From NCBI GenBank assembly GCA_015143295.1, contig CM026565.1:12026041-12090040 (forward strand): a stretch of 64,000 nt of DNA, read 5' to 3'. The notes under the pieces were generated by a model, which saw nothing but the letters and a program-made list of their open reading frames with translations, was not told the DNA's origin and did not search any database. The stretch comes from Tetracentron sinense (taxonomy: Eukaryota > Streptophyta > Magnoliopsida > Trochodendrales > Trochodendraceae). The first letter of the stretch is position 1. Every line of letters starts with the position of its first letter. Positions 2,632 through 64,000 of this stretch are shown here, one piece after another. Position numbers and translations under genes: made by a program.

Positions 2632-5160
2632 TGTAGAGCCCCGGACCTTTTCACATTTAATGCATGACACTTTCGTTGCCATTTTTGCCTTTAAAGAGGT
2701 ATAATTAATAAATAAGGAAGAAATTGGAAATTCCTAAACGTAAGAAATGTTCCTTTTCGAAGTACGAACCCAACGCAAGTTGAATCGTCAAAATCGGACG
2801 AACGAGTCAAAAGATATGGCCAAAACAGTTTGGACCTGCAGGCAATCGTAGCTCGTAAGGCACTAAGGACATAGCTCGGAAGGCACTAAGGACGTAGCTC
2901 TAGCTCTGATAACGTATACGTTGTGCATCCGTTGTGCAACAGACAACGTGTACGTTGTACAGCTCACGACGGGCACGTTGTACATAAGACAACGGACAAC
3001 GAGATCAGCATTATGCACAACACAACGTGACAACGTGTTCGGCACTATTTACAGCACAACGTGTTTGGCACTATTCACAGCACAACGAGTTCAGCACTAT
3101 TCACAGCACAACGTGTTCGGCACTATTCACAGCACAACGTGTTCGACACTATTCACAGCACAACGTGTTTGGCACTATTCATAGCACAACGTGTTTGGCA
3201 CTATTCACAGCTCAACGTGTTCGGCACTCTTGTTTTTGCAGAAATTTCAGTAAGGGTATTATGGTCTTTTGGTCGGTTCACTCTTACCTTAAGAGTTTAA
3301 CCCGAGCCTTTAGGGCTCATTCTCAACACTTAGAGGATTTGGGGGCTTAGAAGAGAGGAGAAAGGGTTTCCTAAGCTAGGGTTTTGCTTTTGGAGAAGAA
3401 TCAAAGGGGTTTTGAGACCCTAGATCACTTCAAGTCTGGTTTTTCTCCAAGATCACGGCTCAAGCACTCGTGGAGAGCGTTCCCCAAGCTAGGGCAGCAC
3501 CTCACGGTCATTTTTGGAAGGGGTTTCTTCCTCATTTCTTCAAGGTCAGTACTTCTTACTACCCTCCTAGTTATAGCTTCCCTTTTTCCTTTGTTTCTCC
3601 TTGTTTTCCTTCATTTATATGTGTTATGAGATTGGTGGTATGAATGGTGAATGGAGATGGATGTTGGCGAATGGATGCCGTGTGGATGATGTGATAAACG
3701 AATGGGAAAGGGCATTGTACCAATAATGAACATACAAGTGTGATGTGAGCATAACCCACCTAGAAAAGCATGATCTAAGTTTAAGTGAATAATGAACACA
3801 CCCCATGTTTGATGAAATGCCAAGGTGAACAAAATAAATGATAAATTAAGGGAACCCATGCTTAATTGCTCTTGAAATTTGTTAGGGTTCATGATAGTGT
3901 GTTTCTTACATTTCTTAAAATGCGTAGATTATTACTCACTTAAATTGTTATATGCTATACTTTGTGAATTACCCCAAATTGCCATATTTAATTCCAAATG
4001 CAAGTATGCACACGATCTCACGAGCACGCATGAAATGACGTGATTTACCGATGTTTTAAGTATGGGACGTAGAGGTGGGGCATATCCTAAGATATGTTTC
4101 ACTTTGCTTTTGACAAGGGCAAGACAATCATGCATTTCATAGGGAAAGGTCTCCCATCCCCTCGCATGACATGCATAGCATCGCATGACACGCATGAGCA
4201 TAGCATGGCATGACACGCATAGCATAGCATCACATGACACGCATAACTCTGCATGGCATTATACGCATGGATGCTAGTTGCAACAGGCTATGAACGGCAA
4301 CTAGGCATTCACATTCCGCATGGATGCTAGTTGCGACGGGCTATGAACAGCAACTAGGCATACCCATCTGCATATAGGGTACTAGTTGCGACGGACTATG
4401 AACGGCAACTAGGCATGTGAACATGTTTAAATTATGAACAAGCAAGCATGATACTCGCATGACACGCATGATGCAAGCATGACAAGCATGACACGGTTAA
4501 CAAGTTCCCAATCACGCAAAGGGTATTTCAAGTCAAGTCAAGTGTACGATGGTTTCCAGGGTTTTATCAGTTTTTCTGAATGCAAGCATGAATATAAATT
4601 GCTTTACTTCCTTGCATGATATAAATCGTTCCTGTTCTATATATGAAATTTGTTTCCTACTTTATTTATGCTATCTGTATACTATGACTGTTGGTTAGTA
4701 TTTAGTACCCGCTGAGTATTCCATGCTCAGCCGTACTTCTTATGTCGGCAGGTTCTGAGGGAGCTGCTGCTCCATTTGATGTTTGTGCTCCTGGTCCATG
4801 GGTGGAGGAGGAGTACGTCGAGGAGACTTTGGAGGAACCTCCCGTAGAGGGTTATCAGTAGGTGGTGTTAGATTCTGAGTGGATTAGCTGTGGGTGAGCA
4901 TGAGTGATTATATCCATGTATTTTGGCGGGCATGTCCGCACTTTCTTTGTTTTGATTTCTTTGTATTAAACTTGGACCGTGTGTATATACTTAGAGGTTG
5001 TTAGACTTTCGCTGTGTTTTATAGTTATGTTTCCGCTGTCATCCTCTATTGTATATGCTCTGTGGATGTTTGCAGGTTGGTTTGTCAAGCAAGTCATGTA
5101 AGCCATGATTAGTCGTCCAAAGTTCACTCTAACTCTTAGGGTGGGTTTTGGGTCGCGACA
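2632..5160 (+). repeat. LTR A: 3' LTR of the Tekay-like element
   Basis: It starts TGTAGAGCCCC directly after the polypurine tract and ends GGTCGCGACA. It contains, in order: the shared upstream box around GAGTCAAAAG (2800-2830); a palindrome and tandem-repeat cluster based on CAACGTGTTCG (2915-3235); a leader; an array of about 60-bp units with the stem CTAGTTGC/GCAACTAG (4255-4420); and the two-hairpin motif (4712-4753). No clear TATA box is visible. Its right flank after the cluster closely matches LTR F, although the clusters themselves differ. Confidence 0.93.
3030..3230 (+). repeat. 26-bp tandem repeat in LTR A
   Basis: About eight head-to-tail units of roughly 26 bp, each with CAACGTGTTYGGCACTATTC and a short tail, vary at a few positions. 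They follow palindromes of the form AACGTATACGTT at 2910-3005. The ORFs predicted across it on both strands are repeat translations, not genes. Confidence 0.9.
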
Positions 5161-6719: not shown

Positions 6720-7930
6720 TTTCAAAAATGTGTGTCAGAATAATCTTTCCGCAGGACGAAGTTGACCTTCATTGTCACCCTACATGAAAGCTTTGACAGG
6801 GGCACAATTTTCTTTCCATCACAGTATAGCCGCCTAAGGAAATGAAGCGTTCCAAATTTCGAAGAAGTGATGATGATAGTGTCTAGTATTAATGAGGAGA
6901 CGTGACGTTTCTGTACACATGATGTAGATGACGCGACTCTGAACATTCGTGTGCCGCATGCGCAACGTTACCTTATACGCAAGTGACAGGTCTCACATTC
7001 CTTGGCCGCCGGGGTATTTATAACGCTTTGAACGTTGTTCAAAACTTCATAAAGGGGCAATTTGTAAGGGATAATTTTCGTAAAACAACAAACTCAGTGA
7101 CAACGAGCATGCTTCTAGTGTCACGACATTGAATGAGGGACTCGTAATCCTTTGGAGTTTATTTGTGTTGTTCTCTCAATAACGTGTTCGTTGTCGAAAA
7201 GACAACGGGACCGTTGTCGAAAAGACAACGAGAACGTTGTCTGAAGGACAACGGGGCGTTGTTCTCTCAACGTGTTCGTTGTCTAAAAGACAACGGGACC
7301 GTTGTTGAAAGAACAACGAGCCCGTTACCTATTAGATAACGAACCCTAGTGACGGAAACAACGGTCTCGTCAAGTTATGATAACGGACCCGTATTTCTGT
7401 CAATAACGAAACTAATCAGCAGGATCCTGTAATCGAGAAGTAATCATTCCTTTCTGAGGGTAGATGAAAAGCACTGAGTTAGCATTTAATGCCAGTCATT
7501 TCAACCGAGTTCCTACCCCTTACCTGCTCTGCACTGCGTGCTGATACGCATGCAGTACGTACAGCTCAAAATCTATCCAACATGTTTCGTGATGAGTAGG
7601 AGGCAGAGAACACAGGCATGTATGGCCATGAGTGATCGCCTATGGCCAGGAGGAAGGGACCTATAAATACTCTTAGAAACAGTGTGTGAAAGGAAGAGGA
7701 AAAAAAGGGAAAAAAGGAAAAACGAACTAAAACTGATCAACTCCTAATACTCATCTTCTTTACTGTTCTTCATCTCCTTCACATACTGACTTTGGCATCG
7801 GAGTACAGGTTGGGGTGCACACCCTCCTCGTCATCTTCATCAACAGTTGGGGTCTTACTATCTTCCTTCGATCGATGATCCATATTGCAAAGCATCTACT
7901 GATACGTGTACTCTCCAGAAAATTCCCACA
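6720..7930 (+). repeat. Probable Tat-like LTR (boundaries approximate)
   Basis: It has a TATA box (CTATAAATAC at 7661), a following R-like region with GACTTTGGCATCGGAG near 7785-7805 and GGGGTGCACACC after it, which I recall as typical of Tat-type gypsy LTRs. Upstream of the TATA, 7165-7400 holds a palindrome cluster (AACGTGTTCGTT, CAACGGGACCGTTG and variants). The start is uncertain and the end is near CCCACACA. No target duplication was found. It probably pairs with the antisense ORF to its left. Confidence 0.5.
7165..7400 (+). repeat. Palindrome cluster of AACG...CGTT type
   Basis: About eight imperfect palindromes built as GACAACGnnnnCGTTGTC are separated by short AAAAG-like spacers. The core matches the cluster of LTR A (CAACGTGTTCG), although the host LTRs are otherwise unlike. 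Confidence 0.85.
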
Positions 7931-7932
7931 CA

Positions 7933-19163: not shown

Positions 19164-22100
19164 TGTAGAACCTCGGAACATTTCGTACCTAATGAATACC
19201 ACTCTAATTAGCCTTTCATGTAGTCCAATTTAATAAATAAAAAAGAATTGAAAGATTATAAAATGCTAGAAATGTTCCTTTTCGAATGACGAGTCTAATG
19301 TAAGTTGAGTTGTCAAAATCCGACAAACGAGTCAAAAGTTATGGCCAAAATAACGAAGTAGGAAAAATGAGAGAAATCAGCAAAATGGGCAAAAACACAG
19401 ACCAGCCGATTGACCGCTCCCAGGACCGATCAATCGGTAGCCTACCGCTCGACCGCTATCAGGACCGATCGACCGCTCGCCTACCTTTCGACCGCTCTAT
19501 CCACCGATCGACTGTTATCGCACTAATTTTGTATAGGGGATTTTTTCAGAGAGGGTCCTTTGGACCAATCAACCGCTCCTCATGACCGATCAACCGCTCC
19601 TCATGACCGATCGACCGCTCATTCACGAAATTGACCAGTTTGGTCTTTGACCACCCCTTTCTTCTATATAAACCCAATTTCGGGGTTGAGGGTTTACAAA
19701 ACCCTCAAACTTGCATTTTGGAAGATTGGAGAAGGAAGAGAAAGGAAAATTTGGGTTTTGCTCAAGGGAGCTTGGGGATTGAAGGGTGAAGCTCAACTAA
19801 AGCTTGGATTTTCATTTTCAAGCAAGGATCTTCCCTATTTCAAGCTTGGAAGCATTTCCTTCAAGAGGGATCACCTCTATTGATTTAGGAAGCTTCAATC
19901 AAGGGTTTTCTTCTTTTTCAAGGTCGGTACCCTATGCTACCCTCCTAGTCATGTCTTTCCCTTTCCCCTTTCATTTTTCTTGTTTTCCCTAACTTATGAA
20001 CACAATATGAGATGCATTGTATGCATGGAGATGGATGTTGGGCGATGAATGTCATGTGGATGTTGTGATGAATGAAATGGGAAGAGTATTTCACCAAATA
20101 ATGAACACACGATGGATGATGGATGGAATAGATGAATCATCAATCAAGAAAAGCATATGGAAATTTCTAGGGTTTATGATAGTGTGATTACTTGCTTTCT
20201 ATAACGGCATGAATATTTACGTGTTGAAATGAATATTATTCCATGTATTATTGAATTTCAAATGTCACGTTTAATTCCAAGCTAAAGCATGTACATGACT
20301 TCACGAGCACGGTATGCATGACATAGTTTATCGATGTTTTTCAAAACAAGAGTTTTATTCTCGATTCACGAACACCATGACAAGGCCAAATGTAAGGGTT
20401 GGTAATTTGAGGTAGGACATATCTTACAATATATTTTGCCTCGCTTTTGACAAGAACAAGTGCATCTCATTGAAAAGAGGGCTTCTATACCACCCTCCCT
20501 CGTAAGTACATCTCATTGAAAAGAGGGGGTTCTATACCACCCTCCCTTGCAAGTGCATCTCATTAAAAGCGGGGGTTCTATACCACCCTCCCTCACAAGT
20601 GCATGAGCATGTTTAAATTCCAAGCAAGCAAGCAGGCATGAACATTTTAAATTCATGGCATGACATGCATGACACAACATGACAAGCAAGGAAGAACATG
20701 ACAAGACATGTAGAGCCCCGAAAATTTGATTCACTGTTCATGTGAATAGAGCCCTTGTATGGTATGTGTAAAGGCCTAATGCCTTACATGGTATTCTTGG
20801 TATTATGATGAGTCAAGTGAGGGTCTTAGGTATGTATTTGGAGTCTCAAAATGAGAGTATAAAGATACTCTAAGTGGTTAAAAACAAGGGTATAAATACC
20901 CAAGGTGTTTAATGGGTTGTGAATGAATAGTGTAATGAATAGTGCTAGTGCGCGAGGCATAAGGAGGCCGGGCCCTCTCATGCATATTGGTGTATGTTAA
21001 ATGATCACTTAGAAGGATTTAAAAATATATGTGGAATGATTAATGAGGTGTGAGTATGGTTTTGGACCCGAGGGAAAGGAGTGTGAAAACACTCGAAGTG
21101 TTCTAGATGTTGAAGAGGTATGTTTCGGCATTTCCCTCAACTTTACGAAGCCTTAGTTTAGGCTCCATTGCTCAGAATCAAGTGATTCTTGAGTTTTTGG
21201 AGAGGCATGTGAACCCTCTTTGGGGTTCATGTTCATCACTTTCCCTGATTTTGAGCTGGGGTTGAGTCAAAAGTCCGATTTCCAAAGTCGGGACTGTTGG
21301 AAATCTGGACAGTTAAAACCCAGTTTCAGACCAGTAAACTTTAGGGGTAAAATGGTCCAATAATAAATACGAATTAGAAGTTTTACAAAACATAAAATTT
21401 GTTCTCCTTCGAAAGAAGAATCCAACGCAAGCTGAATCGTCAAAATCGGACGAGCGAGTCAAAAGTTATGGCCGAAATACCAAAGCGGGAAAAATCTGGA
21501 AAATCATCCTGTCAGAGCTATGATCGATCGTAGAAGACCTACGAACGATCGTAGTTACGAACGATCGTAAAGTTACAGAAATGCTGAAAACTCACTGGAG
21601 AAGCTACGATCGATCGTAGGAAGCCTACGAACGATCGTAGAACTCCAGAAACTGAGCAAACTTATTGTAAGACCTACGATCGATCGTAGGAAGCCTACGA
21701 ACGATCGTAGGTGCGCGAATCAAACTCTTTAGTGCGTGATTTTAGGGTTTTCACCCCTTGGCCTATAAATAGGGGATCATTTTTGGGGGTTTTGGGTTAC
21801 CCTAAACCTAGAGAGAGATCTTAGAAGAGAAGGGAAGAGAGTGGAGGATTGCAAGAGGGGTTTTTGGATTTGGAGAAGAAGAGCACAAATCGAGCCTTGA
21901 TCTCGCTCCTATGCGCCATTGGAGCTTGGATCTCCAACATCAAGCTTGGGTTTCGCTTCTACAAGCTTCTTCAAGCCTTTTCAAGCATTGGATCAAAGGG
22001 ATTTCATCCCATAAGGTAGATACACTCTACTAGGTTCTAATTTCATAAATCCTTAATGAAAAGCATGATTTTCTTGACAAGTATAGTTATATATAGCCTC

Positions 22101-38200: not shown

Positions 38201-38321
38201 CTTGGAATTTGTTGATACTATCAATCAGCTTGTTGATATCTTTACTAAACCTCTACAATCTGATAGGTTCAGTGCTTTGAGAAGAGAATTGAGAATGACT
38301 AGTCTAATTGATCTAACTTAA
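35280..38321 (+). pseudogene. pol: Pol region of the SIRE-like element
   Basis: In order: an aspartic protease-like start (DSGCSRHMTG), the pre-integrase zinc finger (WHRRLGHAS ... CDACQLGKQ near 35650-35800), integrase core (FHMDLFGP near 35850 onward), the copia GKKC-like C-terminal region, reverse transcriptase (YVDDIIFGSTN near 37390; FFLGLQIKQ), and RNase H (YSDADFAGCKIDRKSTSETC near 37860). This order is diagnostic of Ty1/copia. Fossil with several breaks. Confidence 0.9.
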
Positions 38322-38497: not shown

Positions 38498-38730
38498 CTG
38501 AATTCGGCGACGAATTCAATCCAGGACGTGATTTCGGCGACGAATCTTTGGGAAATATAGAAAACAGAATGTTTTCTATACTCATTTCGGCGATGAACCT
38601 GGATGAGTCATCCATTTCGTCGACGAAGTCAATTCGAAATCAAACACATTAGGGCTCCCAACTCAATTTCGGCGACGAATTAAGGGACGCAACCCATTTT
38701 GGCGACGAATTGAGTCGTGTGTATAAATAG
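38498..38730 (+). promoter_or_regulatory. Internal promoter-like region ahead of the env-like region
   Basis: Six GAATTCGGCGACGAATTC-type units (first at 38500-38517, others near 38532, 38583, 38614, 38665 and 38697) are followed by a TATA box (GTATAAATAG, 38721-38730), with the env-like start 130 bp beyond. Units, spacing (about 32-51 bp) and TATA placement copy the LTR promoter layout. Function is inferred. Confidence 0.65.
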
Positions 38731-38861
38731 TAACCCCCAAAAATCCACATTTTTTCAAACCTAATCTTTCCCTCCAAAGTCCCTATTCCATTGCTCGTGC
38801 ACCCTTCTTCATTCCAAGATCTAGCAAATCTTTCTAAATCTCTCAGAAAATACCTCTTAGA

Positions 38862-40964
38862 ATGAAGAATGCATCGGTGGAGCCACCAAAGAAGAAATCC
38901 CAAACTGACAAAGGAAAAGAACCGGCCTCAAGTTCAACTTCAGTCCCAGCAAAGTTCAAGGAAGCAAAGTACGAGAAATTATTCAAAGAAAAATTCCTCT
39001 CTCGTTCTCCTCTGTACGGTAAAGTTGTCAATTTCATTAGTCTTGATGCCTATGGGCTCGAACCCATAAAAACCCTCTTTTCTGCCCTAAAATGGGATAA
39101 ATTTCTTGAATCTAACGAACCCATGTTTCCTGAGTTGGTCAAACTCTTTTACACTCACTTCCATTTCAAACAATCCGAATCTCTTATTACCTCATTTGTC
39201 TTAAGTAAAAACATTTCCTTTCATTTAAATAAATTACCCTCAATTTTGAAAATCCCTCAGTGTACCCTTCAAACTTTTGTGAATGGTCAGTGGACCAGTC
39301 ATGAAGGATTTGATGTGGTTGAACCACTGAAAATGATGTGCATAAACCAAGATTTCACCTCTCCTTTTCAACCTAAGGTTAAAGATCTTACTCTCTCTGT
39401 TAGATTGATTCATCACATAATCACCTATAACCTAGTTCCCAGGGCTGGTGGTAGGGAGTATCTCACCTACTTCGATGTATTCCTTATGTGGTGCATCCTA
39501 ACCACCACACCCATTGATCTCTCCTACATCATTGTCCATTGTATGGATGATGCATTCAAGAGAAAATTAGGGTGTCTCCCTTTTGGTCAGGCTCTGACTA
39601 AAATCTTTAAATACTTCAGTGTTCCTTTAGCCTCTCAGATAGATATTGTCATCCCTGATGATTGCTCCATTTATAGCAAAGCAACCATTCAAAGAATGGG
39701 CTATATCTGGAATAACTCCCAGAAGGTTTGGACTCCCAAACCCTCTACTTCTCAGTCCTCCTCCCTTCCTTCCAGTACTCCAATTCCTATTCATACTCCA
39801 TCTCTACCTTTTTCTACTCCCTCTTCATTTATTCATTCCTCTTCATCTGCACCCACAGCAAAACTTCAGGCTGAGCAGCAGTAAGCATCAGTGCCAGAAG
39901 AGGAACCCCAGGCTGAGCAGTAGCCAGTACCAGAAGAGGATCCTGCAGATGTGCTTCAGGGTGAGCAGCACCCCAGAGATGAGTTGCCTGACTGGTCTGA
40001 TTTTGTGGATGCTGGAGAAATTCCAGAGAGTTCTCACAGACAGGAGTCTCCTCACTTTGAGGACCCTGGTCATTTTTTTGAGGTGCCCAGCAGAGTAGAA
40101 GCTTCAGAAGATCTTTTAGGTCTTATGGTAGGGCAGATAGCCTCTATGTCCTCCAGCATGGAGAGTTTTCAGTTAGAGATGAGGTCTAGCCAGCAAGCCT
40201 TTCAAGAGGAGATGAGAGCTTCCTTGCTATCCTTCATGGCTGAGACTAGGGCAAGCCTTTCTGTCATTCAATCCGAATCAAGGACAAACCTTCAAAACCT
40301 CCAGTCCTCAACTCTCTCCAGACTTGCAGCACTTGAATCTGAGATGTGCAACATTCCCAAGACAGTCCAGTCCTCTCTAGCCTCGGTTCATCATGACCTT
40401 AGAGAGAGTGCAGATGCCACCTACTCTGTCTTAGGAACAGTCAACGTGGATGCTTCAATAACCAAAGATAGAGTTGACTCTATATCTTCTTTTCTTCATA
40501 GATTGGGGGCAAAACAGTCAGAAGAGAGTATCAGAATGGAGAAGGTCACTAAGAGAATCCAAGGACTAGTAGAGTCCTCAGCTCTTCAAGTGAAAACTCA
40601 AGGGAAATTTCTTTTGGATATGGCAGAGCATGATTCCATGTATGCCTCCATTATTTTGCGAGCCACTGATCAGTTGAAGAAGATGAACAATTTTTTGGTG
40701 AGCTTGGCTAGTTGAGCTCCTCTTTCTCAACCTCCCTCTCATGCTCCCTCTTCTTATTCCAAAGGCAAGAGACCAATGAAGGTAACCCCTTCCAAAAGGG
40801 GTCAGTCTGCCAGCTCTCCTATCATCTCCCTTCCTTCCTCAGACTTGGATACAACCTCTTCTTCCTCAGACTCTCCTGATCTTGGAAAATGTACTGAGCC
40901 TACAGAAGATGTCCTCACCAAGGTTGCAGATCTCCTTAAAAAGCAGAAAGCAGAAGGGTTGTAA
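38862..40964 (+). pseudogene. Env-like region of the SIRE-like element
   Basis: SIRE-type elements carry an extra ORF between pol and the 3' LTR, called env-like although its role is unproven. Here the first part (340 residues) has a globular helical domain with NKLPSILKIPQ, VPRAGGREYLTYFDVFLMW and a moderately hydrophobic stretch near residues 205-225. It resembles, from memory, the Pfam 'putative plant transposon protein' domain (PF20167), followed by a Ser/Pro/Thr-rich linker. The second part is a long coiled coil and the end is acidic and serine-rich. Broken, with a few breaks. Confidence 0.65.
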
Positions 40965-41395
40965 TAGTTAAATTTTTTTTTGATGTTGCCATAGGGGGAG
41001 AAATATGAAATGTAATGAAAATTTAAATTAAATGAAAATTTGATGATTGATAAATGAAATGACATTTGAACTATTTGAAATATGATTTTTTTTTGCATCT
41101 TTGGCAGTACACAACATAATATGTCTTCTACAATTCTCGTCTTGTCTTGACTCAATATGTTGTGAGTAGAAATTAAAATTGAAACGTATCCTTGTGGAAT
41201 GTTTTTTACTTAACTAGGGTGATATATCCTTTACCTCATCATAAATATGCATCTAAACAACAACTATGGTTATTTTTTTTAAATGCATATGCGTAGGGGG
41301 AGCTTACCTCAAAATATGTATGAAAAACATGTCGTGAGGGGGAGCTTAACCCAAATTTCATTACATTATTATGTCATCATCAAAATGGGGGAGAT

Positions 41396-42905
41396 TGTTA
41401 GCCTCAGGATTACAACCATAAGTACCCCTAATAATTTTGATAATAACATAATAATATAATGAAATATTTGGTACTAATAAAACCATTTAACTGCGTGAAC
41501 ATTTCAGATTTCATAAGTTGATAGCACTCCAATCATGAAAAAGGATGGAAATTACCCAAGAGGAAGTCCAACTCACTGAATACAAGATGAAGATCCAAGA
41601 TAAGACCTTAGTCCAAGTCAGGACCATTGAAGACAAAAGGCACATTTGCAAGACCCAAGTCAATCCAAGATCGTCTCTAATCAATTTTAATGTATTCTCT
41701 TTTCAGTTTGAGAGTTTATAGATTTCATGTAAAAAGTCCTCAAAAGTATGGTAGGATTGAAAAGCTCAAAGAATCATAGATAGACCATAGAAGCCTAGGA
41801 TACTTGTTGGAAAAACAGTTTAAGGCCCTAAGGTACCATAAAATAATGTTTAAAAGGTAGCCGTTTGACCTAGGAAATAAATCTCATTCCTTTGGTCTGA
41901 TCCAAGACTGAATTCAGAATTCTTACTCTGTATTCGTCTACGAATTCTCTAGGAAGATTGAATTCAGCGACGAAGTCATGACAGAAGTTTTTCTAATTCA
42001 GTTCTATTTCCTGAATTCGTCGATGAAATCTTTGGTTGAGATGAATTCGGCGACGAAGTCACTACAGGAATTTTTAGGATTCAAATCTGTTTTATGTATT
42101 CGGCGACGAACTCAAATGGGAACTTCACTTCGTTGATGAAATCATGTCTGAACCTGAAAAGTCGTTGTAACGGCTAGTTTGCAATGGACTAAAAAGCATT
42201 TAATGCTTCCCCAACGACATTATTGGATCAAATGCTATAAAAGTAGTTCATTTATGAACATACAATAACTCTTGATCACAGTAATAACTCTTATTCTTCA
42301 CTGATTCACTGATATTGATTTTCACTCACTCTCACACTTAGAAAATCCCCAAAAAGTTTCTCTTGAGCTCATTCAAGTCTACCTTCTTTAAGAGACTTTA
42401 TTAGAGTTTGTATTTCACTCTTATCCAGCTCACTTAAGGAGCCTTCTGTTCGGATTTTCAATCCAAAACCTATTTATTGAGAGTAGTCAAGAATCCAGGA
42501 TTCTTGCACTGAAGTTGTTGCTTCAGCAATATCAAGAGAGGGTTGTACTCTTGAAAGGTTTCAGCTCGGCCTAAAGGAGAGCTTGAAAGGTGATATCTCG
42601 ACCTGTAAAGAGAGATTGTAAGGGTTTGGACTCCACCTGTGAAGGAGCCTGTACGATTAAGGAATCGTGGTGAATCCTCTAGCTGGAAGCTGAGTCGGGG
42701 AGTAGGCTGGTTTGCTGAATCTCGAGAACAAATCTTGAGTTTGCACTCTTCTTATCTCTTCTCTCTCTTTTAATATTCCATTGTTTTATCTTATTGCATA
42801 TTATACTCTATTCCGCTCTTTGAACTTGTAGTTCATACTTTTAATTTTTAAATATCTGCCTTTGACCCTATTCACCCCCCCTTTAGGGTCATTACTTGGC
42901 CAACA
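41396..42905 (+). repeat. SIRE-like 3' LTR
   Basis: Same length as the 5' LTR and alignable without gaps. Mismatches crowd in the palindrome cluster (41905-42170). Confidence 0.95.
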
Positions 42906-45248: not shown

Positions 45249-47611
45249 TGTAGCACCCCAAAACTTTATTTGACTAATGAATAGTGTAATCGGGGCAGAT
45301 TGGCAATCCTCGGGGTTAAAATTGGCGTTCGAGATGGCTTAGAGGGTTAATCACCCAAGGGCAGCATGAGGGAAGGGGTTTAGGACCCTATAGGTTGTGA
45401 AAATGAGGTTGGAAACACCCCTATGGATCTGCAGGGGCAAAAACAACAAAATCTGGGATGTGCGATCGATCGCAGGTTTGGTGCGATCGATCGCATGCAG
45501 ACAAAATGGGTCCCAAGGTCTCTAGACCATATGCGATGGATGAGGTCTCAGGTGTGATAGATCGCAGTGATCTGTGATCGATCGCAAATATGTGCGATCG
45601 ATCGCATACAGGGGGAAAACAGACAATAGTGCTCGGGTTCATGTGAGATAGATCGCATCCATATGCGATCGATCGCAAGGACCTGCGATCGATCGCAGAC
45701 AAGTGTACAATCGATCGCACGTAGTAACTGGTGCTGGATTTGGGGGTTTTTAACTCTTGTCTTGGTTAGGGATCTCACTATTGAGGATTTCTAACCTAGA
45801 GGAGAGAAAGGAGAGGAGAAGGGAGATTTGAAGGAGGATCCAAGAGGGGATCTTGGGATTAGGATTAAGGGATCAAGCTTGAAGATTCAAGCAACAACCA
45901 CCCTCAATCAAGGGTTTCCTCAAAGATCAAACTTGACCTTCAAGGTTAGTACATACTAACTTCTCTAACAATAATCTAGGTTTTTACTTTTGAAAATCAT
46001 GATTTAATCTTGTATTCCCTTCCCTTGAAACATACCATATATCTTAAACCTAAAACAAGATAAATGTAGATGAATGGTGGGATGTGTGAATGGATGAAAT
46101 GGTGTTGAGGCGATTGGATGCCGTGTTGGTTGATGAATGTGTGCAGGAAAAATGGTGGATGGGTATCTCAAGCATAAAGAATACACCCCTTGTGTTTGAT
46201 GGAAAACATGCACTAAGAAACATAAATAAAAAGACTATAAATGTGATGCTTGCTAAGTGTTTGATAAAATGCTTAAATGACGATGTGAATGAATGAACTT
46301 GAATTATGAAAGCATGGATTGTGTTATTATTGTTAAATACCTACCTTGATCAAATGCCCTACATGTTATCTACATTCCCTTATGCTTGAAATGGAAATGC
46401 TATACTTATGTGATCCTCTCATCCAAGCATGTCATCATGATTGTCACTATTGGCACACACACGAGCATGCCTGTTTGCATGAACCGAGTTTTCAAGAGTA
46501 TATGCATATAATAAATCAACAAGAAAACATTGCATGTCAAGGATGTTGGTAGCCTAGGGATGTTCGGGTACTAGCCTCTGGCTCACAAGAAAAATAAAAA
46601 TACTGCATGTCAAGGAGGTTGGTAGCCCAGGGATGTACAGGCACTAGCCTTTGGCTCACAAGAAAACTAAACAAGTAACTAAAACCAATATATGTCAAGG
46701 AGGTTGGTAGCCCAGAGATGTGCAGGTACTAGCCTCTGGCTCACAAGAAAACAACATATCAAGGAGGTTGGCAGCCCAGGGAGGTTCGGGTGCTAGCCTC
46801 TGGCTCACAAGTAAATGAAATATGTCAAGGAGGTTGATAGCCCAAGTGAAGGGTACTAGCCTCTGACTCACAAGAACAGGCTCACAAGAAAAGGCTCACA
46901 AGTATACAAGATGAGACAAGACATGCATGCATAATTTTCACAAGCAATACCGAGACATGAAACGAGTTTTCCAAGCATGAGTTTTATCGGAGTTTTCGCA
47001 TTCATGCACACATGTCAAGATAATGATATTGTTTCATGTTCAATACCGTTTATCTCATGATGCTACTATTGCTTTGAATTGATACCTTGTATTGTGTTCA
47101 CCCTTATTGTGCTTTTATTATTGCTATGGTTAGCTAGTAGTTTGCACTCACTGAGTATTCCATGCTCAGCCGTACCTTTATATCGGCAGGTACTGAGGAA
47201 GCCCTCGACTCAGAGCCTTGAGTCGAGGAAGAATACGTAGAGGAGAGAGAGCCGTCTATCCCGTTACAGTCTCAAGCGGATAGAGACCTCGACGTGTGGC
47301 CATACCTCGACTACTGTTGAGGGGAGAGTACGAGAGGTTTCTTTTGTGTATTTTGATATTTTGATAGGTGGGCCTGTCCACCTTAGACTGGGATATGTTT
47401 TGCGTATATGTTCACTTGGAATACTATTTTGGAATTTTAGAAGAAAAGAAAAAGTTGGTTTACACTTCCGCATGCATGTTTAGCTTCCGCGCTTTGATTA
47501 TTGTTAGTATCATATTATGTTAGCCTTATTTACTTCAGGATGGTTTGGCAGGTACAATTAGTCACTCCTAAAGTATCCCTTAACCTCTAGGGGGTATTTT
47601 GGGGCGCGACA
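45249..47611 (+). repeat. LTR D: gypsy solo LTR inside element J
   Basis: TGTAGCACCCC...GGCGCGACA, 2,363 bp, flanked by CCCTC (45244-45248, 47612-47616). It contains palindromes TGCGATCGATCGCA (45455-45725), five units of about 60 bp with GGTTGGTAGCC...GGTACTAGCC stems (46535-46915) and the two-hairpin motif (47153-47191). No obvious TATA box. Its 3' end closely matches LTR G. The small ORFs translating to CDRSHI-like text are repeat translations. Confidence 0.95.
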
Positions 47612-47616: not shown

Positions 47617-47693
47617 TCTTTGGAGATTCATATTCACCGAAAATATGAGACAAGATCACACTAACAAGTTAGTGAACCTGCTCTGATACCAAT
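47617..47693 (-). other. Element J leader with Met-initiator tRNA primer site
   Basis: CTCTGATACCA (47681-47691) is the reverse complement of TGGTATCAGAG, the usual copia primer site, just inside the J 5' LTR. Confidence 0.8.
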
Positions 47694-49798
47694 TGAAGAA
47701 AACAATTAATTCGGTGAATCCCAAATCTATGGTTTGAGTTGAGATTCTCACAAAGTCAAGGGGATGGTTAGGGCTCCCTATAGGTCTATCTACCCTTTTT
47801 GATGTTTTAACAATTAAGTTATAAATTAAGGGATGATGTACTTTAAGTGCGGAAAATAGAAAGCCAAGCAAACCACAACATAAAGATTTTTACGTGGAAA
47901 CCCTTCCGGGAAAAACCACGGGACCTAGTCTAGCCATGAGAATCCACTAAGACAAAGTAAACAAGAACTTACAAGACTCGAACTTGACTCCTTCGAACTT
48001 GACACTTCGATCCTTCAGTTCTTAGTCCTCATGCCTTGAAAATTCATCACGTACTCACAAATCTTGTGATCAACCGCAGCCACTTATACTTCTCTTTTGT
48101 GTCTCAAAAACAGTCCACGATCTTCCAATCAATCTCTGTCAATGACGGCTTCGGAATCCACCGACCAAATCACACTACCACGATCCGTCTCGGATCAATC
48201 TCCTTCGTAAAGGCTCCGGAACACTCTGGCCAAGTTGTTCTATCCAGAACGGGTTGATGGTTTGATAGAAATCAATACCTAGATGGACTCCTTCAAAGGA
48301 AAAGTCCAAACAAGCAAAATTGTAGCTTTAGGGTTGCAAACTCTAGGTTGAAGGAAGCTAACCAAGGGGAGGAGAAAAATAATATTTCAGAGCTTTTATG
48401 AACTCCAGAAGGAGTTAAAAACCCTCTTTATACTCTCCCAAAGTTGTCTACCATGAACTAGAAGGGTTCAATATAAATAGATGATCAAAAGCCATGTTTA
48501 AAGGTTGCTAAAAACCAAGAAGGAAGTTGCCAAAATAATAAAATAGCAAAAAAATTGATTTGGCAAAAAATCCCATATCAGGGTCAACCCTGGGGGATGG
48601 TTTGGTCGAACAAAGTGTACCTTTTGGTCAACCGAATCATCCTCCAGGGCAGACCCCCATTTTTTCATCTCTCTACCTATTTTCCTCATACAAAAAATTC
48701 CATACCAGGGTCGAACCTAAATGGTCAGGGTTGACCCTAAGGTGCAAACCTGAAATTAAAACTTCGTTTTTGGGTCTCACACCACTCACAAAAGTTGTAG
48801 CTCTTTTCGATGTGGTCATTTTGACATATTATGGAGCAAAATCTGAGCTCCGGTTTGGGAGATATGCCCAAAACAAGCAACCTTGGTTTTTTGAAAATTT
48901 TTAGAATTTTTAAGTTGTTTTGCATTACTTATCTCACCACCTAGGTTCCGTCTGGTTAGTCTAGGACACTTACCACCTAAGGCAACATGTTAGGATTATC
49001 CTAAGTCAATTCCCACCTATGGTAGCATGGTATCTAGGTCACTTATCATCCTATGAATGATATGATCAAACCAAGTCTTCAACGGTCTTCAACTTCACTT
49101 GTTTGCGAATGCTTGACGGCAACGACACAAGATACACACCTAGACACCTAGATTCATTTGTTTTGACACCGGAATATGCCAATACATAAAACATGGACTT
49201 TACAGTAACTAACCAATTTAGCAACTAAGCAATTAGCAACTAATAAAGTAATAACTAATAAAGTGGGTGTCCCACCCTCAGTGGCCCCACTATCTCATGC
49301 CCCTCAATGAGTTCCAAACTCATGTTGGTCAATGTTTTGATCTTTATCAAATTTCTTATATGGGTGCTACCCATTTAATTAATCACATCTCATGTGATTT
49401 GATCTATTAGAGCTTCACTATACCATATAGTGAATTACATTGAGGATTTAATTAAATTCAATTAAAGCTTCAAGAAGGTCCTAGTGTGTGAGATCTCTCA
49501 TTTCCGATAGTGGGACCAAGTGCTTAACCTTTTGGTTGAGTCCTGTTGCTAGGAAACACTTTCCTATGATTCCATTAGGATCTTAGAATCTTATCTAGGT
49601 CCCTGGACTTTCTCTAATCACAATAATGTCCATTAACACAATGTGATTAACCTTCAGAAAAAGGAGAATTACTTGCAGGTATTATCTATTACAAGGTTCG
49701 TTTACATATACGTACTTCCACCTCCAATATAAATTACTCTAAGAGAGGAGTGTTGGATTCCTTGTTGAGCATACACACACTTCTTCTAATATAGCGTA

Positions 49799-52241
49799 TG
49801 TAGAGACCCAAATCTTTTTCTTGTGTATATTACAAGTATTAGGGGTATTATAGTCCTTGTGATGTTTTAATGTTTATGTATTAATATCTAATTAGTACAG
49901 TGTGATTAAGGCTTAATTAAACTTGTAATCAGAGGCATGTCATATCACACCCTGACTTTTAGGAAGCTCCATTTTTGGCACTGTTTATTGGAATTGAGTG
50001 ATTCTTGAACCATTAGAAAGGTAATGGAACCCTCTTCGAGGTTCATGTTTAATGTTTTTCCATATTTTTAGTCTAAGCTAAGTTAAAAGTGGGTTTTCCG
50101 ATGTTTTGTCTGATGGAATTACAGATCAGTCAACTTTGGGGATATTTTGGTCTATAAATAAAGTAGAATTTGGAAATTTTAACATGTCAAAAATGTTCCT
50201 TTTCAAAAGACGAATCCAACGTAAGTTGAATCATCGAAATCCGACAACTGAGTCAAAAGTTATGGCCAAAACAGTATGATGGGTCAAATTCTGCAGAGCA
50301 CCGATCGCTAAGGATCGATCGGTACCCAATCGATCGCTCGGTCAGAAGTAGCGATCGATCGGTCCACAACCGATCGATCGGTAGCTATCGACTGGTTAAC
50401 TTCTCTGTATGGGGAATTTTTCAAGAGAGGGTGTTTTTGACCTAGAGCTCGGTCATAACCACCGATCGCTCGGTCTTTCGTGTTTTTACAAAATTTCAGT
50501 AAGGGCTTTTAAGTCTTTTGGCTCTCAAACCTTGGGGCTATAAATAGGAGTCCTATTTCGAGGTATTAGAATACTCTACTTATTTCTAACCTAATTTGGT
50601 AAAAAGGGAGAGAAAACCTAGGGTTTTGGGAGGAAGATTGCTTGGAGAAGAAGGAGATAGCTTGGATATCGCTAGGAAAGCTTGGAGATCATCCTCAAAG
50701 CTTCCCCAAATCATCTTGGAAGCGATTTGGATCCAAGGGAAGGATCCCTAAGGTCGATATACTATCCTAATCAACTCTATTTCAATGTTTCGTGAATGTT
50801 AATATGATAGAAATGATAGAATGGAGATTAGATGCATTTCTCTCCTAATTTTCTATGAAGTAAGCTAATTATGGATGGGAAATGTGGATTAGAATGTGGA
50901 TAGAATGTATGGAGGATGAGATTAATATGTGGATGTGAATGGTGAATGGATTGTATGGATGGATTATGGTTTGATGAATGTTTGAAAATGTAGAAGGGTA
51001 ATGGATTCATATTATGCGTACTCAAGGTGTTTGTGAAAATGCTTGAGAGGATAAATGCTATTATACTCTTATGAACTGGTGGTAAATTCATTATGAGTTG
51101 TGCTATGAATTATGATAAGATATGTATATGTGATTGTTTGATAAGTATGTTTAATTACTTGCATGAAAATTGATAGTTGGGAAGGCAAGAACTTAGAGGA
51201 AAATCTCTCAAATCGGGAATTCTCTAACTATTTGGTATGGGATAGTATAGTGGAGTTTCTATGATGGGAGATCGGAATCTAAGCAATTACCAACTCGAAT
51301 GTTAATTTCGACACTTAAGGACATATGCATGTGTATGTTAAGATAAGAGTCTCACAAGTCACACATGTGGACCACAAGCATGAGCATGACATACGTATGA
51401 CATTCTGAATAAGCATAAGCATGACATGGTCCGTATCCGCCAAGAACGGCATGTCAATCATTTGATTCTTAAGCATGGTCCGTATCCGCCAAGAATGACA
51501 TGCCAACCATATGATTTCTTAGACATAGTCCGTATCCACCAAGAACGGCATGTTACATCATTGTATGATCTGAATAAGTGCATAAGCATAAGCATCACAC
51601 AAGCACGTGGTCTCATAAGCATAAGCAGCTCATAAGTGTATTGTCTTCTAAGTCTAAGATTCTCACAAGTACATGAGTCAAGGTGATGATATGATGTATA
51701 TGCGCACACGTTCTTCCGTACTCTGATTATGTTATTATGCTATTGGATATGTTTCTAACTAAGTGCAGGTATATTATTATTATTGGTTGGATTTTATATA
51801 CACTGAGTACCTTTGTACTTAGCCAGACTTTGTCTTGGCAGGTTTAGAGCAGCAGTACACGGCGGAGCCGTGGATTGAGGAAGCTTACATCGAAGAAGGT
51901 GGTGAAGGTGAGCCTTCCGAAGAATGAGCCGGTGGCTTGGGTGGCTTCCCCTATTAGTTTATATTTTGTTTGGTGTGAGATTTTTGTAACAGACTGTCAG
52001 ATGATGTTGCTCATTAGACTTCTTTTTAGTTGTATTTTCAGACCTTTTGGTTTATAGTGAGTTGTATATGTTTACCGGTAGACTTGTGCTATTTGATTAT
52101 AGTTGATATATCAGAATTTTGTTATCCTCATTTTTGGAGACTCATGTAGTAGCCTTGTATACATGGATTTTAAGCAGGTTTAAGTAAGGTGATGTTTTCC
52201 AAAGTCCTATTTTAGTCTTGTGGGATTTTGGGGTCATTACA
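49799..52241 (+). repeat. LTR E: gypsy solo LTR inside the 3' LTR of K
   Basis: TGTAGAGACCC...GGTCATTACA, 2,443 bp, flanked by GCGTA (49794-49798, 52242-52246). It has the box GAGTCAAAAGTTATGGCC near 50250, palindromes ACCGATCGATCGGT (50300-50475), a TATA box (CTATAAATAG at 50538), three units of about 60 bp with TGGTCCGTATCCGCCAAGAA (51425-51560) and a diverged two-hairpin motif (51804-51843). Confidence 0.95.
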
Positions 52242-57320: not shown

Positions 57321-59555
57321 ACACGATTACCAAAATAACCTAGGAGTTAGAGTGAATCTTGGACGACCAATCATGACTTACATGACTTGCTTGACCAAAA
57401 TAACCTGCAAAAGACCCACAAAGCATACACAATAGAGGATAATAATAGCGGAAATATAAACTATAAAGCACAGCGGAAGACTTAACCAAAAACCTCTATA
57501 TGTATATACATATACATGATCAAAGTTTATACAAAAAAGAAAATACACAAAAAAGTGCGGACAGGCCCGCCAAAAGACATGAATATATCTCTCTCAACTC
57601 ACCCACAGCTCACTCACTCAGAATCTACCACCTCTAATAATAATCCTCGACTGGAGGATCCTCCACAGGCTCCTCAACGTACTCCTCCTCCACCCATGGG
57701 CCAGGAGCACAGACATCAAATGGAGCAGTAGCTCCCTCAGAACTTGCCGACATAAACGTACGATTGAGCATGGAATACTCAGCGTGTACCAAATGCTAAC
57801 CAACAGTCATAGCATAACCATAGCAACGTATATAACAGAGGACAATTCATATTATAATGCTGGAAACAATTTATATCATAACAAGGAAGTAAGGCAATTT
57901 ATATTCATGCTTGTATCACAGAAAAGCTGATAAAACCTCTTGAAATAGTCGTGCACTTGACTTGACTTAAAATACTTGTTGCGTGTCATGCCATGTCATG
58001 CTCGCTTGGAAAGTGAACTACTTGTGAGGGAAGGGAGACCCTTCTTCCTAAATGTTCATGCTTGTCATGCCATGTCTCTTGCTTGCTTGGAAAATAAACG
58101 TGTTCATGCTCACTTGGAAAGTAAACTACTTGTGAGGGAAGGGAGACCCTTCTTCCTAAATGCACTTGCGAGGGAAGGGAAACCCTTCTTTATGATAGTG
58201 TATGATTGTCTTGTCCTTGTCAAAAGCGAGGTAAAACATATCGTAGGATATGTCCCACTTCTAAATCTCATTCTTGAAAATCCTCGGTAAACCATATCAT
58301 GCATGCCGTGCTCGGGAGATCGTGTACATACTTGCATTTGGAAATTAAACATGACATTTGAGAAATTCACAATACATATAACATTGATAATTTGAGCAAG
58401 TTAATATTCATGCAATTTAGGTAAAACAAGGAAACACACTATCATAGGCCCTAGGAATTTCCATAATTTATTAAGCATGCATCTCTTAATTTCCAACTCT
58501 TTATAGTCACCTTGGCATTAAATCAAACATAGGGTGTGTTCATTATGTATTTAACCTACATCATGCTTTTCTAGGTGGATTGATGTTCACATCATACATG
58601 TATGTTTATTATGGATACAATGCCCTCCCCTTTTCATCCATCACATCATTCCACATGGCATCCAATCGCCAACATCCACCTCCATTCACACCATTCACAC
58701 ATCCCAACTCATAGCACATTTATGGATGAGGGAAAACAAAGAATAGGGAAAGAAAAAAGAAAACTATAACTAAAAGGGTAGCACAAGGTACCGACCTTGT
58801 ATAGAGGAAGAAACCCCTTACAAAACGTGCGTGAGTTGCTGCCCTAGCTTGGAGAGCGTAGTCCTCACGGGCTTGAACCTTGAACTTGAAGGAAAACGAG
58901 CTTGAGGTGGTTGTGGGTTCACAACTCCTTTGATTTCTCCCCAAAAGAAATCCTAGGTTTAGAAACCCTTTCTCCTCTCTTTCTATCTCTCAAAACACTC
59001 TAAGTGTGTGAATGAAGCCCTAAAGGCTCGAGCAAGCCTTAATAGGCAAGAGTGAAACGCCCAAAAGACGAAAACACCCTTATTGAAATTTCTGCAAAAC
59101 GCGGGGAACCGAGCGATCAGTGGTTATGACCGATCGATCGGTTGCCTACCGAGCGATCGGTGTTCTTGACCGAGTGACTGGTCAAAAACATGATCTCTGG
59201 AAAATTTCCCCATACAAAAAGTGCACCAGTCGATAGCCTCCGATCGATCGGTTGTGGACCGATCGATCGCTACAATGGATCGAGCGATCGGTGGTCTGCA
59301 GGTTTTGCCACTGAGTCCATTTTTCACCCATTTCTACTATTTGGACTTGTCCTACTTCTATTCTAACCTCTTCTAAACTCGCCTAGGACACTTGTAAGGC
59401 TATAGTTTATTATTAGATAATTTATTTAATTAATTATAGCATCCTTGAGACAATTCTCTAAGTTTTCAAATTATCATTTCATGAAATTGGACATTACAAG
59501 GTATCATGCCTTGGCACTCATTCCAAAACATGGGCAAACGTTCCGGGGTTCTACA
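57321..59555 (-). repeat. LTR F: gypsy LTR, minus orientation
   Basis: Read on the minus strand it starts TGTAGAACCCCGG at 59555. Its inner end near 57321 is degenerate and no target duplication was found. It contains palindromes ACCGATCGATCGGT (59105-59300), three hairpin units with GAAGGG/CCCTTC stems (58010-58190) and the two-hairpin motif (57743-57780). The sequence after the cluster matches LTR A closely. Confidence 0.85.
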
Positions 59556-61870: not shown

Positions 61871-64000
61871 TGTCGTGCCCCAAAATACCCCCTAGGAGTT
61901 AAGGGATACTTTAGAGGTGACTATTCATACTTGCCAAACCATCCTGTAATAAACAAGGCTAACACGATACAACAACAACTATAATTAGAGTACGAAAGCT
62001 AAACATAAGTGCGAAAACATGAACTAATTTTTTTTCTTTTCTTCTATAATTCAAAACAGTATTCTAAGTGAACATATACATAATACATCAAGTCAAAGGT
62101 GGACATGCCCACCAATCAAAATACAAAATGAGAAACCTCACAACTCTCTCTCTCTCGCTCAATAATCACCCCCGTGGGGCCAATGGTCTAAGTCCCTTGC
62201 CTCGGCCTGAGGCTCAACTACCGACTCTTCATATTTTTCTTCCTCGCCGTAGTCCTCAACCTAAGGACATGGAGCACAAATATCAAAAGGGACCCGTGCA
62301 CCTGCCGACATGAAAGTACGGTTGAGTATGGAATACTCAGTGAGTACAAGCTACTAGCCAATCATAGCAATAACAATCACACAAACCAATGAAATATAAT
62401 TCATCATTTCAATCTAACGCAATAGTAGCAGCACATAACAAATAATAGTAATCAAAGCAATATGATAATCTTGACATGCTTGATTGAATGCAAAAACTCC
62501 GGTAAAACACATATTTCGAAATCATGACTTGTTCTTGAAAATAGCTTTTCTTGTTTTACAAAACTTACTTGTCGTGTTAAAACCTGTTCTTGTCTTGTTT
62601 TGTATCGTGGGAATCACACCTGTCAGGCTTGTTCTTGTTATATTCTTGACATGTTCTTGACTGGACTTCCTTGTATACTTGTGAGCCAAAGGTTAGTGCC
62701 CTTGAGGCGACTTGTGAGCCGGGAATGTAAATTCCCTTCAGCGAAATACACTAACCTCCTTGTCTTGTTTTCTTGTGAGCCAGGTATGACATATCTTGCG
62801 AAATGCCCTACCCTTGACCAGCTTGATGTCCGGCTTTATCATTCATGTTTGTTTTTTTTGTGAGCCAGGTATGACATATCCCAGGGATATGCCCTACCCA
62901 TGACCGGTCCGATGTCCGGGTTTATCAATTGTATCGTGAATCACATTCTTGTCCTTGTCGTTTCTTGTGTACATATACTTTAGAAAACTGATTCATGCAT
63001 CCATGGGTGCGTGTGTGTGACAATTGTAGTAACATGATGACATGTATGAATAGAAGGGTCACATAAGTGTAGCATTTCGATTCTTAACTTAATCATATGA
63101 TAATTTAGGCAACATATAGCGCATTCGATCAATTTATCATTTATAAGAAACATTACATAAATCCTACTTCCATTTTCTTCATTAAATCTATTAAACTCTT
63201 GTTTAGGCATTTTATCAAACACTTGGCATACAATATTTCTTAGTCATTTCATCTTCTCCTTTTAGTGCATATTTTTCATCAAGACATCGAGGTACGTTCA
63301 TTATTGTTAGAATGCCCTTCCACCATTTTCCATTTCACGCAACACACCACATCCATACGGCATCCAATCGCCTCAACCTCCATCCAATCCACACATCCAT
63401 ACCTTTCATTTATCTTGTTTATATTTAGGGAAAATAATACATTTCAAGGAAAGAAGAACACAAGATCAAAATCATGATTTTTAAGAGGGAAAACCTAGAT
63501 TATTGCTAAAGAAGTTAGTAGGGTGTACTAACCTTGAAAAGAAGAAGAGAGAAACCCTTGAGAATGTCGTGAAAGATGCTGTCCTAGCTTGTAAAGAGCT
63601 CCACATGAGCTTGAGGCCTGGGCTTGAAGAAATCCAAGCTTAGTGATGATTATAGGGTTCTCAAACCTTTGGTTCTCTCAAGTTGGAACCCTAGGAGAAA
63701 ACCCCTTTCTCCTCTCTCACTCTCTCTCAAATATGTTGCCTTAGGGTTTATGAACCCTTATGGTTCGAGCAAGGCTTCTAAAGCCAAGGGGTGATGGCCA
63801 AAAGACCTAAAATGCCCTTAATGAAATTCTACAAAAACACGAAAGACTGAGCGATCGGTGCTTATGACCAAGAAATCGGTTAAAAACACCCTCTCTGAAA
63901 TTTTTCCTCATACAAAAAAGTGAACCAGTAGATAGATACCGATTGATCGGTTGTGGACTAATCGATCACTAGTTTGGACTGAGCGATCGGTTGTGGACCG
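61871..64000 (-). repeat. LTR G: gypsy LTR, minus orientation, cut by the window edge
   Basis: TGTCGTGCCCCAAAATACCC at 61871 is the reversed 3' end, closely matching that of LTR D. It contains the two-hairpin motif (62301-62339), hairpin units with GGCATATCCCTGGGATATG (62680-62925) and the start of an ACCGATCGATCGGT-type cluster (63845 to the edge), like LTRs E and F rather than D. Confidence 0.85.

What the first reader, a model, noticed from the sequence alone, without database searches (positions are those of the whole stretch)
2900..64000. Exchangeable palindrome clusters upstream of the transcription start in many unrelated LTR families
Seen directly: twelve or more LTRs, gypsy and copia, each carry at one place, usually 50-300 bp before the TATA box where one exists, a cluster of short palindromes with a CG-containing core. 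Types: AACGnnnnCGTT (LTR A, 7165-7400); CCGATCGATCGG (B, E, F, G); TACGATCGATCGTA (C); TGCGATCGATCGCA (D); AGGGTCGACCCT (J, 28070-28235 and 48580-48745); GAATTCGGCGACGAATTC (SIRE-like); TTCGAA (25855-26015); CCTTTTAAAACGGCGC (Ogre-like). The cluster type does not follow LTR family. This looks like a mobile or fast-converging promoter module. Possible roles, all inference: binding sites for dimeric transcription factors, methylation-sensitive switches, or escape from host small RNAs by changing the repeat.
Basis: partly seen in the sequence, partly recalled or inferred. Interest (0 to 1): 0.88.

Follow-up and report, generated by a model that had tools for sequence, protein, structure and literature searches.

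The report
Swappable palindrome modules in retrotransposon promoters
Many jumping genes of this plant-like genome carry, just before their transcription start, a swappable cluster of short mirror-symmetric DNA words that looks like docking sites for a paired regulatory protein, extending to a second large group of elements a feature so far described in one.

Summary
The clusters are real. CGATCGATCG occurs 74,402 times per strand in the genome against 822 for the reversed control; CAACGN4CGTTG 20,657 against 1,001. The unit is mostly a 14-bp dyad: two 5-bp half-sites around 4 bp, often NCGA, most copies 19-23 bp apart.

"Many unrelated families" is overstated: seven of the window's LTRs are linked by flank similarity (chromovirus-like); LTR A, LTR J and a Sirevirus-like copia element are separate. 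The TTCGAA and Ogre-like types are not supported.

Exchange is supported. Of 40 LTRs picked by an upstream box, 35 carry two or more dyads (shuffled 1.8). Seven types occur; flank trees need 11-13 type changes. A2 and L081 are 94% and 88.5% identical on either side of unalignable modules. Motif columns diverge less than linkers in 5 of 5 clades.

The "SIRE-like LTR" is an internal promoter of a copia element whose LTRs carry the same six-dyad array on the same 30/53-bp grid; other copies show this layout.

Palindromic boxes in Sirevirus LTRs and before ENV are published. The chromovirus extension, module swaps and shared grid appear new. The binding factor is unknown.

The parts
2905..3235 (+). 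Module of LTR A2 (LTR about 2632-5160): CAACG-type array, 23-bp then 26-bp repeats, in place of the ACCGA module that its flank relatives carry
   Evidence: LTR start 2632
7181..7328 (+). Module of LTR A: CAACG-N4-CGTTG dyads, mostly 23 bp apart; TATA at 7662
19400..19630 (+). Module of LTR 19k: ACCGATCGACCGCT-type repeats; box at 19329, TATA at 19665
21519..21711 (+). Module of LTR C: TACGA-NCGA-TCGTA dyads, 6 exact; box at 21456, TATA at 21764
28072..28233 (-). Module of LTR J, first copy (27191-28698): TCGA-centred dyads CAGGG, TTTGG, TGCAG and others, four of them at 22-bp steps
   Evidence: strand from the PBS-like site at 47691
48579..48719 (-). Module of LTR J, second copy (47691-49204), decayed
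32492..32699 (+). Sirevirus-like copia element, 5' LTR (31955-33464): six TTCG-NCGA-CGAA dyads, gaps 30,53,30,53,30; TATA at 32794
33525..35228 (+). gag ORF of that element (PF14223, zinc knuckle)
35620..38321 (+). pol pieces of that element (gag_pre-integrs, SH3_retrovirus, RVT_2; last piece without a Pfam match above cut-off), read as separate ORFs
38503..38709 (+). Internal promoter array of the same element: six TTCG-NCGA-CGAA dyads, gaps 30,53,30,52,30; TATA at 38722
38862..39884 (+). Accessory ORF behind the internal promoter, PF20167 (Transposase_32, putative plant transposon protein)
   Evidence: structure model uninformative
39951..40715 (+). Second ORF, perhaps the C-terminal part of the same accessory gene; no Pfam match above cut-off
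   Evidence: the relative P0001 carries both a PF20167 part and a long C-terminal tail
41933..42140 (+). Same element, 3' LTR (41396-42905): same array, gaps 30,53,30,53,30 (last site with 2 mismatches)
45461..45725 (+). Module of LTR D: TGCGA-TCGA-TCGCA dyads, 5 exact
50302..50474 (+). Module of LTR B: ACCGA-NCGN-TCGGT dyads; box at 50250, TATA at 50539
59108..59292 (-). Module of LTR E, ACCGA type
63846..64000 (-). Module of LTR G, ACCGA type, decayed, cut by the window end

Best explanation
Each cluster is a cis-regulatory module in the upstream (U3) part of an LTR: an array of 14-bp dyads (5-bp half-site, 4 bp, inverted half-site), most of them about two helical turns apart, set a short and nearly fixed distance before the TATA box. 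It most likely works as a row of binding sites for a dimeric sequence-specific DNA-binding regulator that switches transcription on or keeps silencing off. The half-site that an LTR carries can change quickly: recombination or template switching between LTRs replaces the whole module while both flanks stay, and repeat turnover keeps the copies within a module alike. In the Sirevirus-like element the same array on the same spacing grid stands before the LTR promoter and before the internal promoter of an accessory ORF, so one factor probably acts on both. Shown: dyad rule, enrichment, module replacement, lower divergence of motif columns, shared grid. Inferred: protein binding, effect on transcription, identity of the factor, route of exchange.
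For: Enrichment. Dyad bounds: symmetry at flank positions 1 and 2 of CGATCGATCG (0.66 and 0.70 against 0.32 with shuffled partners, 31 groups) and not beyond. Place: 34 of 44 typed LTRs have a TATA-like site a median 63 bp after the last dyad. Exchange: A2/L081, L062/L056 and L042/window B, trees, A/A2 unit with unrelated flanks. Constraint: motif columns diverge less than linkers and than the rest in 5 of 5 clades, motif marked on one row and divergence measured among the others. Spacing 19-22 bp dominates in the ACCGA, TACGA and TGCGA modules, 23 bp in CAACG, 22 in J. LTR and internal arrays of the copia element: dyads agree at 60 of 96 positions, linkers at 37 of 129, null mean 26.5%.
Against: No binding, expression or chromatin data. 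Single-clade shift tests are weak: 0.02, 0.06, 0.28, 0.13 and 0.08 of circular shifts are as low. CpGs in motifs are clearly spared only in the two ACCGA clades (0.067 against 0.185; 0.042 against 0.167), hardly in TACGA and TGCGA (0.124/0.160, 0.336/0.339, 0.272/0.309). Spacings do not share one helical phase. Half-sites have little in common across types beyond CG, which one conserved factor would not predict. Type labels and clades were set by me. With 4-bp half-sites spacer 4 does not stand out.
Confidence: 0.68

Rival explanations
1. RNA or small-RNA reading: the dyads matter as hairpins in the transcript, as packaging or processing signals, or as a source of small RNAs that the host exploits.
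For: 5-bp stems with 4-nt loops are possible for each dyad. In maize Sireviruses palindrome-rich LTR regions are small-RNA hotspots (Bousios 2016 as cited in passages of PMC10760457 and PMC5311732; the paper itself is not held).
Against: In 314 dyads of 44 LTRs, changes that keep G-U pairing are not favoured: C>T 40, G>A 51 (p 0.29); A>G 6, T>C 16 (copies are related, so this is a weak test). A fixed ACCGA-type site with a broken pair (C>G at position 2) recurs 33 times. A base-pair spacing grid is not needed for separate hairpins.
Confidence: 0.12
2. Neutral repeat turnover: tandem duplication and quasi-palindrome correction make symmetric words without function.
For: Modules are partly tandem arrays. 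5 of 37 two-mismatch dyads are symmetric double changes, more than my rough expectation of 1 to 2.
Against: Motif columns diverge less than linkers in 5 of 5 clades. The 30/53 grid agrees in the LTR and internal arrays while linkers agree only at 37 of 129 positions. The symmetric part is sharply bounded and the place before TATA nearly fixed.
Confidence: 0.1
3. CpG switch: the modules are short CpG-dense patches whose methylation state sets promoter activity, and the palindromes follow from symmetric CG sites.
For: CGATCGATCG holds three CpGs in 10 bp; RM clusters form CpG islands in Sireviruses (PMC2829016 abstract).
Against: Symmetry extends to non-CpG outer bases, and non-CpG motif columns diverge little too (0.000-0.076 across clades). 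No methylation data here.
Confidence: 0.1
4. Vertical descent only: each type arose once per LTR lineage and drifted, with no exchange of modules.
For: Types cluster on the flank trees: 11 changes against 19.9 shuffled upstream (five labels), 11 against 21.0 downstream (eight labels).
Against: A2 vs L081, L062 vs L056 and L042 vs window B have flanks 79-94% identical around different module types, with starred branches for these placements.
Confidence: 0.15

Closest known systems
Sirevirus repeated-motif (RM) boxes (PMC2829016: abstract, sections 9 and 19 and passages read)
   Same: Clusters of short palindromes upstream of TATA in LTRs and again just before the ENV gene; type differs between elements; an internal promoter was suggested there. 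Two of its 13 motifs (Vitis CGGTCGACCG, Tnd-1 ACAATCGATTGT) have a TCGA centre.
   Different: Described for copia Sireviruses, as absent from classic elements, and with a CGG-CCG core in 12 of 13. Here most modules are in chromovirus-like gypsy LTRs, lack that core order, follow a 5-4-5 rule and are swapped between near-identical flanks.
Maize Sirevirus LTR palindromes (Bousios 2016; known to me only from citing passages)
   Same: Rapidly evolving palindromes in the LTR cis-region.
   Different: Small-RNA mapping there; no small-RNA data here; other element group.
VANC anti-silencing motifs of VANDAL transposons (PMC5735166: passages read)
   Same: Short motifs in arrays in non-coding parts of a mobile element, changing between related elements and read by a sequence-specific protein.
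   Different: DNA transposons with their own VANC gene; motif YAGTATTAY arrayed in one orientation, not a dyad. No reader protein is known here.
Foamy-virus Tas with response elements in LTR and internal promoter (PMC517496: abstract start in a listing)
   Same: The same kind of site before the LTR promoter and before an internal promoter that drives an extra gene.
   Different: Animal retrovirus; there the extra gene is a proven activator. The PF20167 ORF has no tested function.
Tnt1 U3 subfamilies (PMC1838419: passages read)
   Same: Relatives alike except in the U3; modular evolution of the regulatory region.
   Different: One copia superfamily; no general dyad rule reported in the passages seen.

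Membership tests
Sirevirus (copia element 31955-42905) | Copia-type gag and pol | tested here: met
   PF14223, gag_pre-integrs, SH3_retrovirus and RVT_2 matches above cut-off
Sirevirus (copia element 31955-42905) | Several identical AGGGGGAG polypurine tracts between the last gene and the 3' LTR | tested here: met
   Three copies in the whole window on the + strand, all here at 40993, 41295 and 41337; a variant (TGGGGGAG) just before the 3' LTR
Sirevirus (copia element 31955-42905) | ENV-like gene after pol | tested here: inconclusive
   An ORF is there but matches PF20167, not an envelope
Sirevirus RM boxes | Palindrome clusters upstream of TATA in the LTR and before the gene after pol | tested here: met
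   Arrays at 32492, 38503 and 41933
Sirevirus RM boxes | CGG-CCG core | tested here: not met
   0 CGG..CCG in the three copia arrays; 1 of 13 published motifs lacks it too
Sirevirus RM boxes | Host element is a Sirevirus (box LTRs A2, B, C and others) | tested here: not met
   The A2 element has gypsy-type RT/RNase H, integrase with SH3 and a chromodomain (chromo 24.2 bits, just under the cut-off of 25.1)
VANC-like system | Element-coded protein that binds the motif | not testable with these tools
   PF20167 ORF is a candidate in one family only; model pLDDT 37.6
LTR plus internal-promoter transactivator circuit (foamy-virus-like logic) | Same sites before both promoters, in more than one copy | tested here: met
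   Window element, and two complete copies among the first C1 places listed
LTR plus internal-promoter transactivator circuit (foamy-virus-like logic) | The extra gene activates both promoters | not testable with these tools
   Needs expression assays
Modular U3 evolution as in Tnt1 | Near-identical flanks around non-homologous regulatory segments | tested here: met
   A2/L081; L062/L056, L042/window B

The most novel reading that the evidence does not exclude
The dyads are response elements of a fast-evolving set of dimeric regulators that the retroelements supply or hijack, and LTRs acquire each other's response modules like exchangeable locks, in gypsy and copia alike. In the Sirevirus-like family the PF20167 gene, behind an internal promoter with the same six-dyad array on the same grid, encodes the activator of both promoters: a plant counterpart of the foamy-virus LTR/internal-promoter circuit with VANC-like turnover of specificity.
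Probability: 0.2. Interest if true: 0.9.

Novelty: new variant of a known kind. Interest (0 to 1): 0.62.

Why it matters
Palindromic promoter boxes have been described as a Sirevirus trait. If chromovirus-like gypsy LTRs carry them in large numbers, follow a common 14-bp rule and swap them as blocks, regulatory modules move between retroelement lineages within one genome. That gives a concrete, testable model of how LTRs keep finding regulators or dodging silencing, and the grid shared by LTR and internal promoter gives an experimental handle on how the extra gene of such elements is controlled.

Tried and rejected
Rejected or weak. TTCGAA and Ogre-like clusters as CG-core modules. Strict helical phasing: spacings of 19, 23, 30, 49-53 and 71 bp do not share one phase (judged by eye, no formal test). 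RNA hairpins as the selected feature. A second internal array in CAACG elements: among the first C1 places, exact-match clusters at 440536/451438, 499988/510564, 617539/628328 and 1156774/1167229 are 10.5-10.9 kb apart with none listed between, so the dual layout is so far seen in one family only. Structure of the PF20167 ORF: pLDDT 37.6, not searched further. Word search: CGATCGATCG is in 48 held papers; the 20 listed looked unrelated to LTRs. My earlier paper searches missed the Sirevirus work, which brought up.

Host species, methylation, small-RNA and expression data were not available.
Full report
What the window is. 64 kb of contig C15 of an unnamed 1.16-Gb genome, full of nested LTR retrotransposons; plant origin is inferred from the element types. 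LTRs with the box GAGTCAAAAGTTATGGCC or a near copy (A2, 19k, B, C) and those tied to them by similarity (D, E, G) form one group. The element that ends in LTR A2 has gypsy-type RT/RNase H, integrase with an SH3 domain and a chromodomain match (24.2 bits, cut-off 25.1), so it is chromovirus-like; the lineage name Tekay is recalled, not tested.

The observation. In the window 11 CG-containing perfect palindromes of 14 bp or more stand against 0.7 in shuffles; in a 200-kb sample of C1-C3 it is 12 against 2.1, shuffle maximum 7. Genome-wide counts against the same word read backwards: CGATCGATCG 74,402 and 822 per strand; CAACGN4CGTTG 20,657 and 1,001; TTCGNCGACGAA 3,782 + 3,951 and 265 + 254; the 18-base box 2,897 + 2,849 and 0. 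The controls have other CpG contents, so the ratios are a guide only.

The unit. In an unbiased scan for repeated 5-bp half-sites spacer 4 gave 11 clusters, other spacers at most 6, shuffles 0. Five of the 11 are TTAAC and one CTTTA, outside the CG types. With 4-bp half-sites the preference is not seen. Perfect 14-bp palindromes also count at spacers 0 and 2, so the spacer classes are not independent. Round CGATCGATCG, 31 groups of cores are complementary at flank positions 1 and 2 (0.66 and 0.70, shuffled partners 0.32) and not clearly beyond. Among centres of exact dyads TCGA leads with 18 against 0.6 shuffled; CATG follows with 15 against 1.4. In 52 box LTRs the centres of exact CG-half dyads are TCGA 74, TCGC 62, ACGA 13 and fewer of others. 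CAACG dyads have a free centre.

A sample not chosen by palindromes. From the 100 box places listed on C1 I took 40 (5.2-35 Mb, close pairs skipped) and read 821 bp each. 39 have at least one and 35 at least two exact spacer-4 dyads in the 400 bp after the box; shuffled 11.7 and 1.8. Types, set by me: ACCGA 25, TACGA 7, TGCGA 3, CTCGAGCGAG 2, GGCGA 1, GGTCGACC 1, GACCGNTCGACCG 1. Dyads peak in the 300 bp after the box.

Exchange. Twelve further LTRs with a box were added, 52 in all. Trees of the 200 bp before the module and of up to 300 bp after it need 13 and 11 changes of type with eight labels, the least possible being 7; with five labels the upstream tree needs 11, shuffled mean 19.9; downstream shuffled mean 21.0. 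So type follows the flanks locally, not strictly. Clear cases: A2 (CAACG) and L081 (ACCGA) are 94.2% identical over 223 bp before and 88.5% over 384 bp after the module, and the modules do not align (86.7% over 271 bp). L062 (CTCGAGCGAG) and L056 (TACGA) are 83.6% and 82.4% identical on the two sides; L042 (TGCGA) and window B (ACCGA) 78.9% and 86.1%. LTR A and A2 share a 23-bp unit (CGTTGT...GACAACG) while the rest of their LTR regions gives no BLAST match. Caveats: the downstream tree flags several long branches, and A2 fills only 38% of its columns.

Constraint. With motif columns marked on one row and divergence measured among the other rows, motif is below linker and below the rest in 5 of 5 clades: 0.062/0.143/0.137, 0.055/0.086/0.183, 0.052/0.124/0.107, 0.174/0.251/0.310, 0.141/0.151/0.326. 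Circular-shift tests are weak one by one (0.02, 0.06, 0.28, 0.13, 0.08). CpGs in motifs are clearly spared in the two ACCGA clades only. Changes inside dyads show no bias towards G-U wobble: C>T 40, G>A 51.

The copia element. LTRs 31955-33464 and 41396-42905 are 97% identical; gag and pol pieces are of copia type; three AGGGGGAG tracts lie between the last ORF and the 3' LTR and nowhere else on the + strand of the window, a Sirevirus mark according to PMC2829016 (passages). Six TTCG-NCGA-CGAA dyads lie in each LTR (before the TATA at 32794 in the first), and six more before an internal TATA at 38722 and an ORF with PF20167. Gaps are 30,53,30,53,30 in both LTRs and 30,53,30,52,30 inside. At this offset dyads agree at 60 of 96 positions and linkers at 37 of 129; the null mean is 26.5% (its grid of offsets includes the true one). 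Outside these arrays only two sites in the window match with at most one mismatch (2600, 7187). Among the first C1 places (74 positions, 34 groups, 16 with more than one site) two copies show LTR, internal and LTR arrays, at 6,033/3,558 bp and 6,047/3,388 bp; pairs 5,903 and 3,217 bp apart fit part of the layout; pairs 7,619 and 4,904 bp apart do not; most groups have no partner in the list. Exact matches only were listed. The array before the ORF thus belongs to the family.

Known and new. PMC2829016 (abstract, sections 9 and 19, passages) reports palindromic repeated motifs in 13 Sireviruses, in LTRs upstream of TATA and, where there is an ENV gene, before it, and takes them as support for an internal promoter. 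The dual layout is known in kind. I found no report of such modules in chromovirus LTRs, of block swaps or of a grid shared by both promoters in the searches. These cover open-licence papers only; I saw listings and the passages named, so this is absence from those searches, not proof of novelty.

Mechanism. I favour arrays of sites for a dimeric DNA-binding regulator with rapid replacement of whole modules (0.68). The factor is unknown. An activator encoded behind the internal promoter is the boldest reading (0.2) and rests on layout alone.

Noticed in passing
61571-61736 (also L007, L012, L023): Clusters of TTAAC-CATG-GTTAA and related dyads without CG, 4 copies in the window; AACCATGGTT is the commonest non-AT palindromic 10-mer in the 200-kb sample (16 copies). 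Origin unknown.
   Followed up: partly
2597-2616: AAATTTCGAGGACGAAATTT, an 8-bp inverted repeat with a 4-bp spacer just before the polypurine tract of the A2 element; same TTCG/CGAA half-sites as the copia array. I recall it as common in chromoviruses; not tested.
   Followed up: no
38862-40715: Accessory ORF with PF20167, then a second ORF that may be the C-terminal part of the same gene, behind an internal promoter.
   Followed up: partly
28072-28151: LTR J holds four TCGA/TAGA-centred dyads at exact 22-bp steps whose outer half-sites differ from each other (CAGGG, TTTGG, TGCAG, CAGGG).
   Followed up: partly
9258-9914: A leucine-rich-repeat gene fragment on the minus strand, the one ORF of 200 aa or more that looked like a host gene.
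   Followed up: no
L060, L066, L077: Upstream and downstream flank trees disagree: L060 pairs with L077 upstream (100/98) and with L066 downstream (100/100), which suggests crossovers besides module swaps.
   Followed up: no
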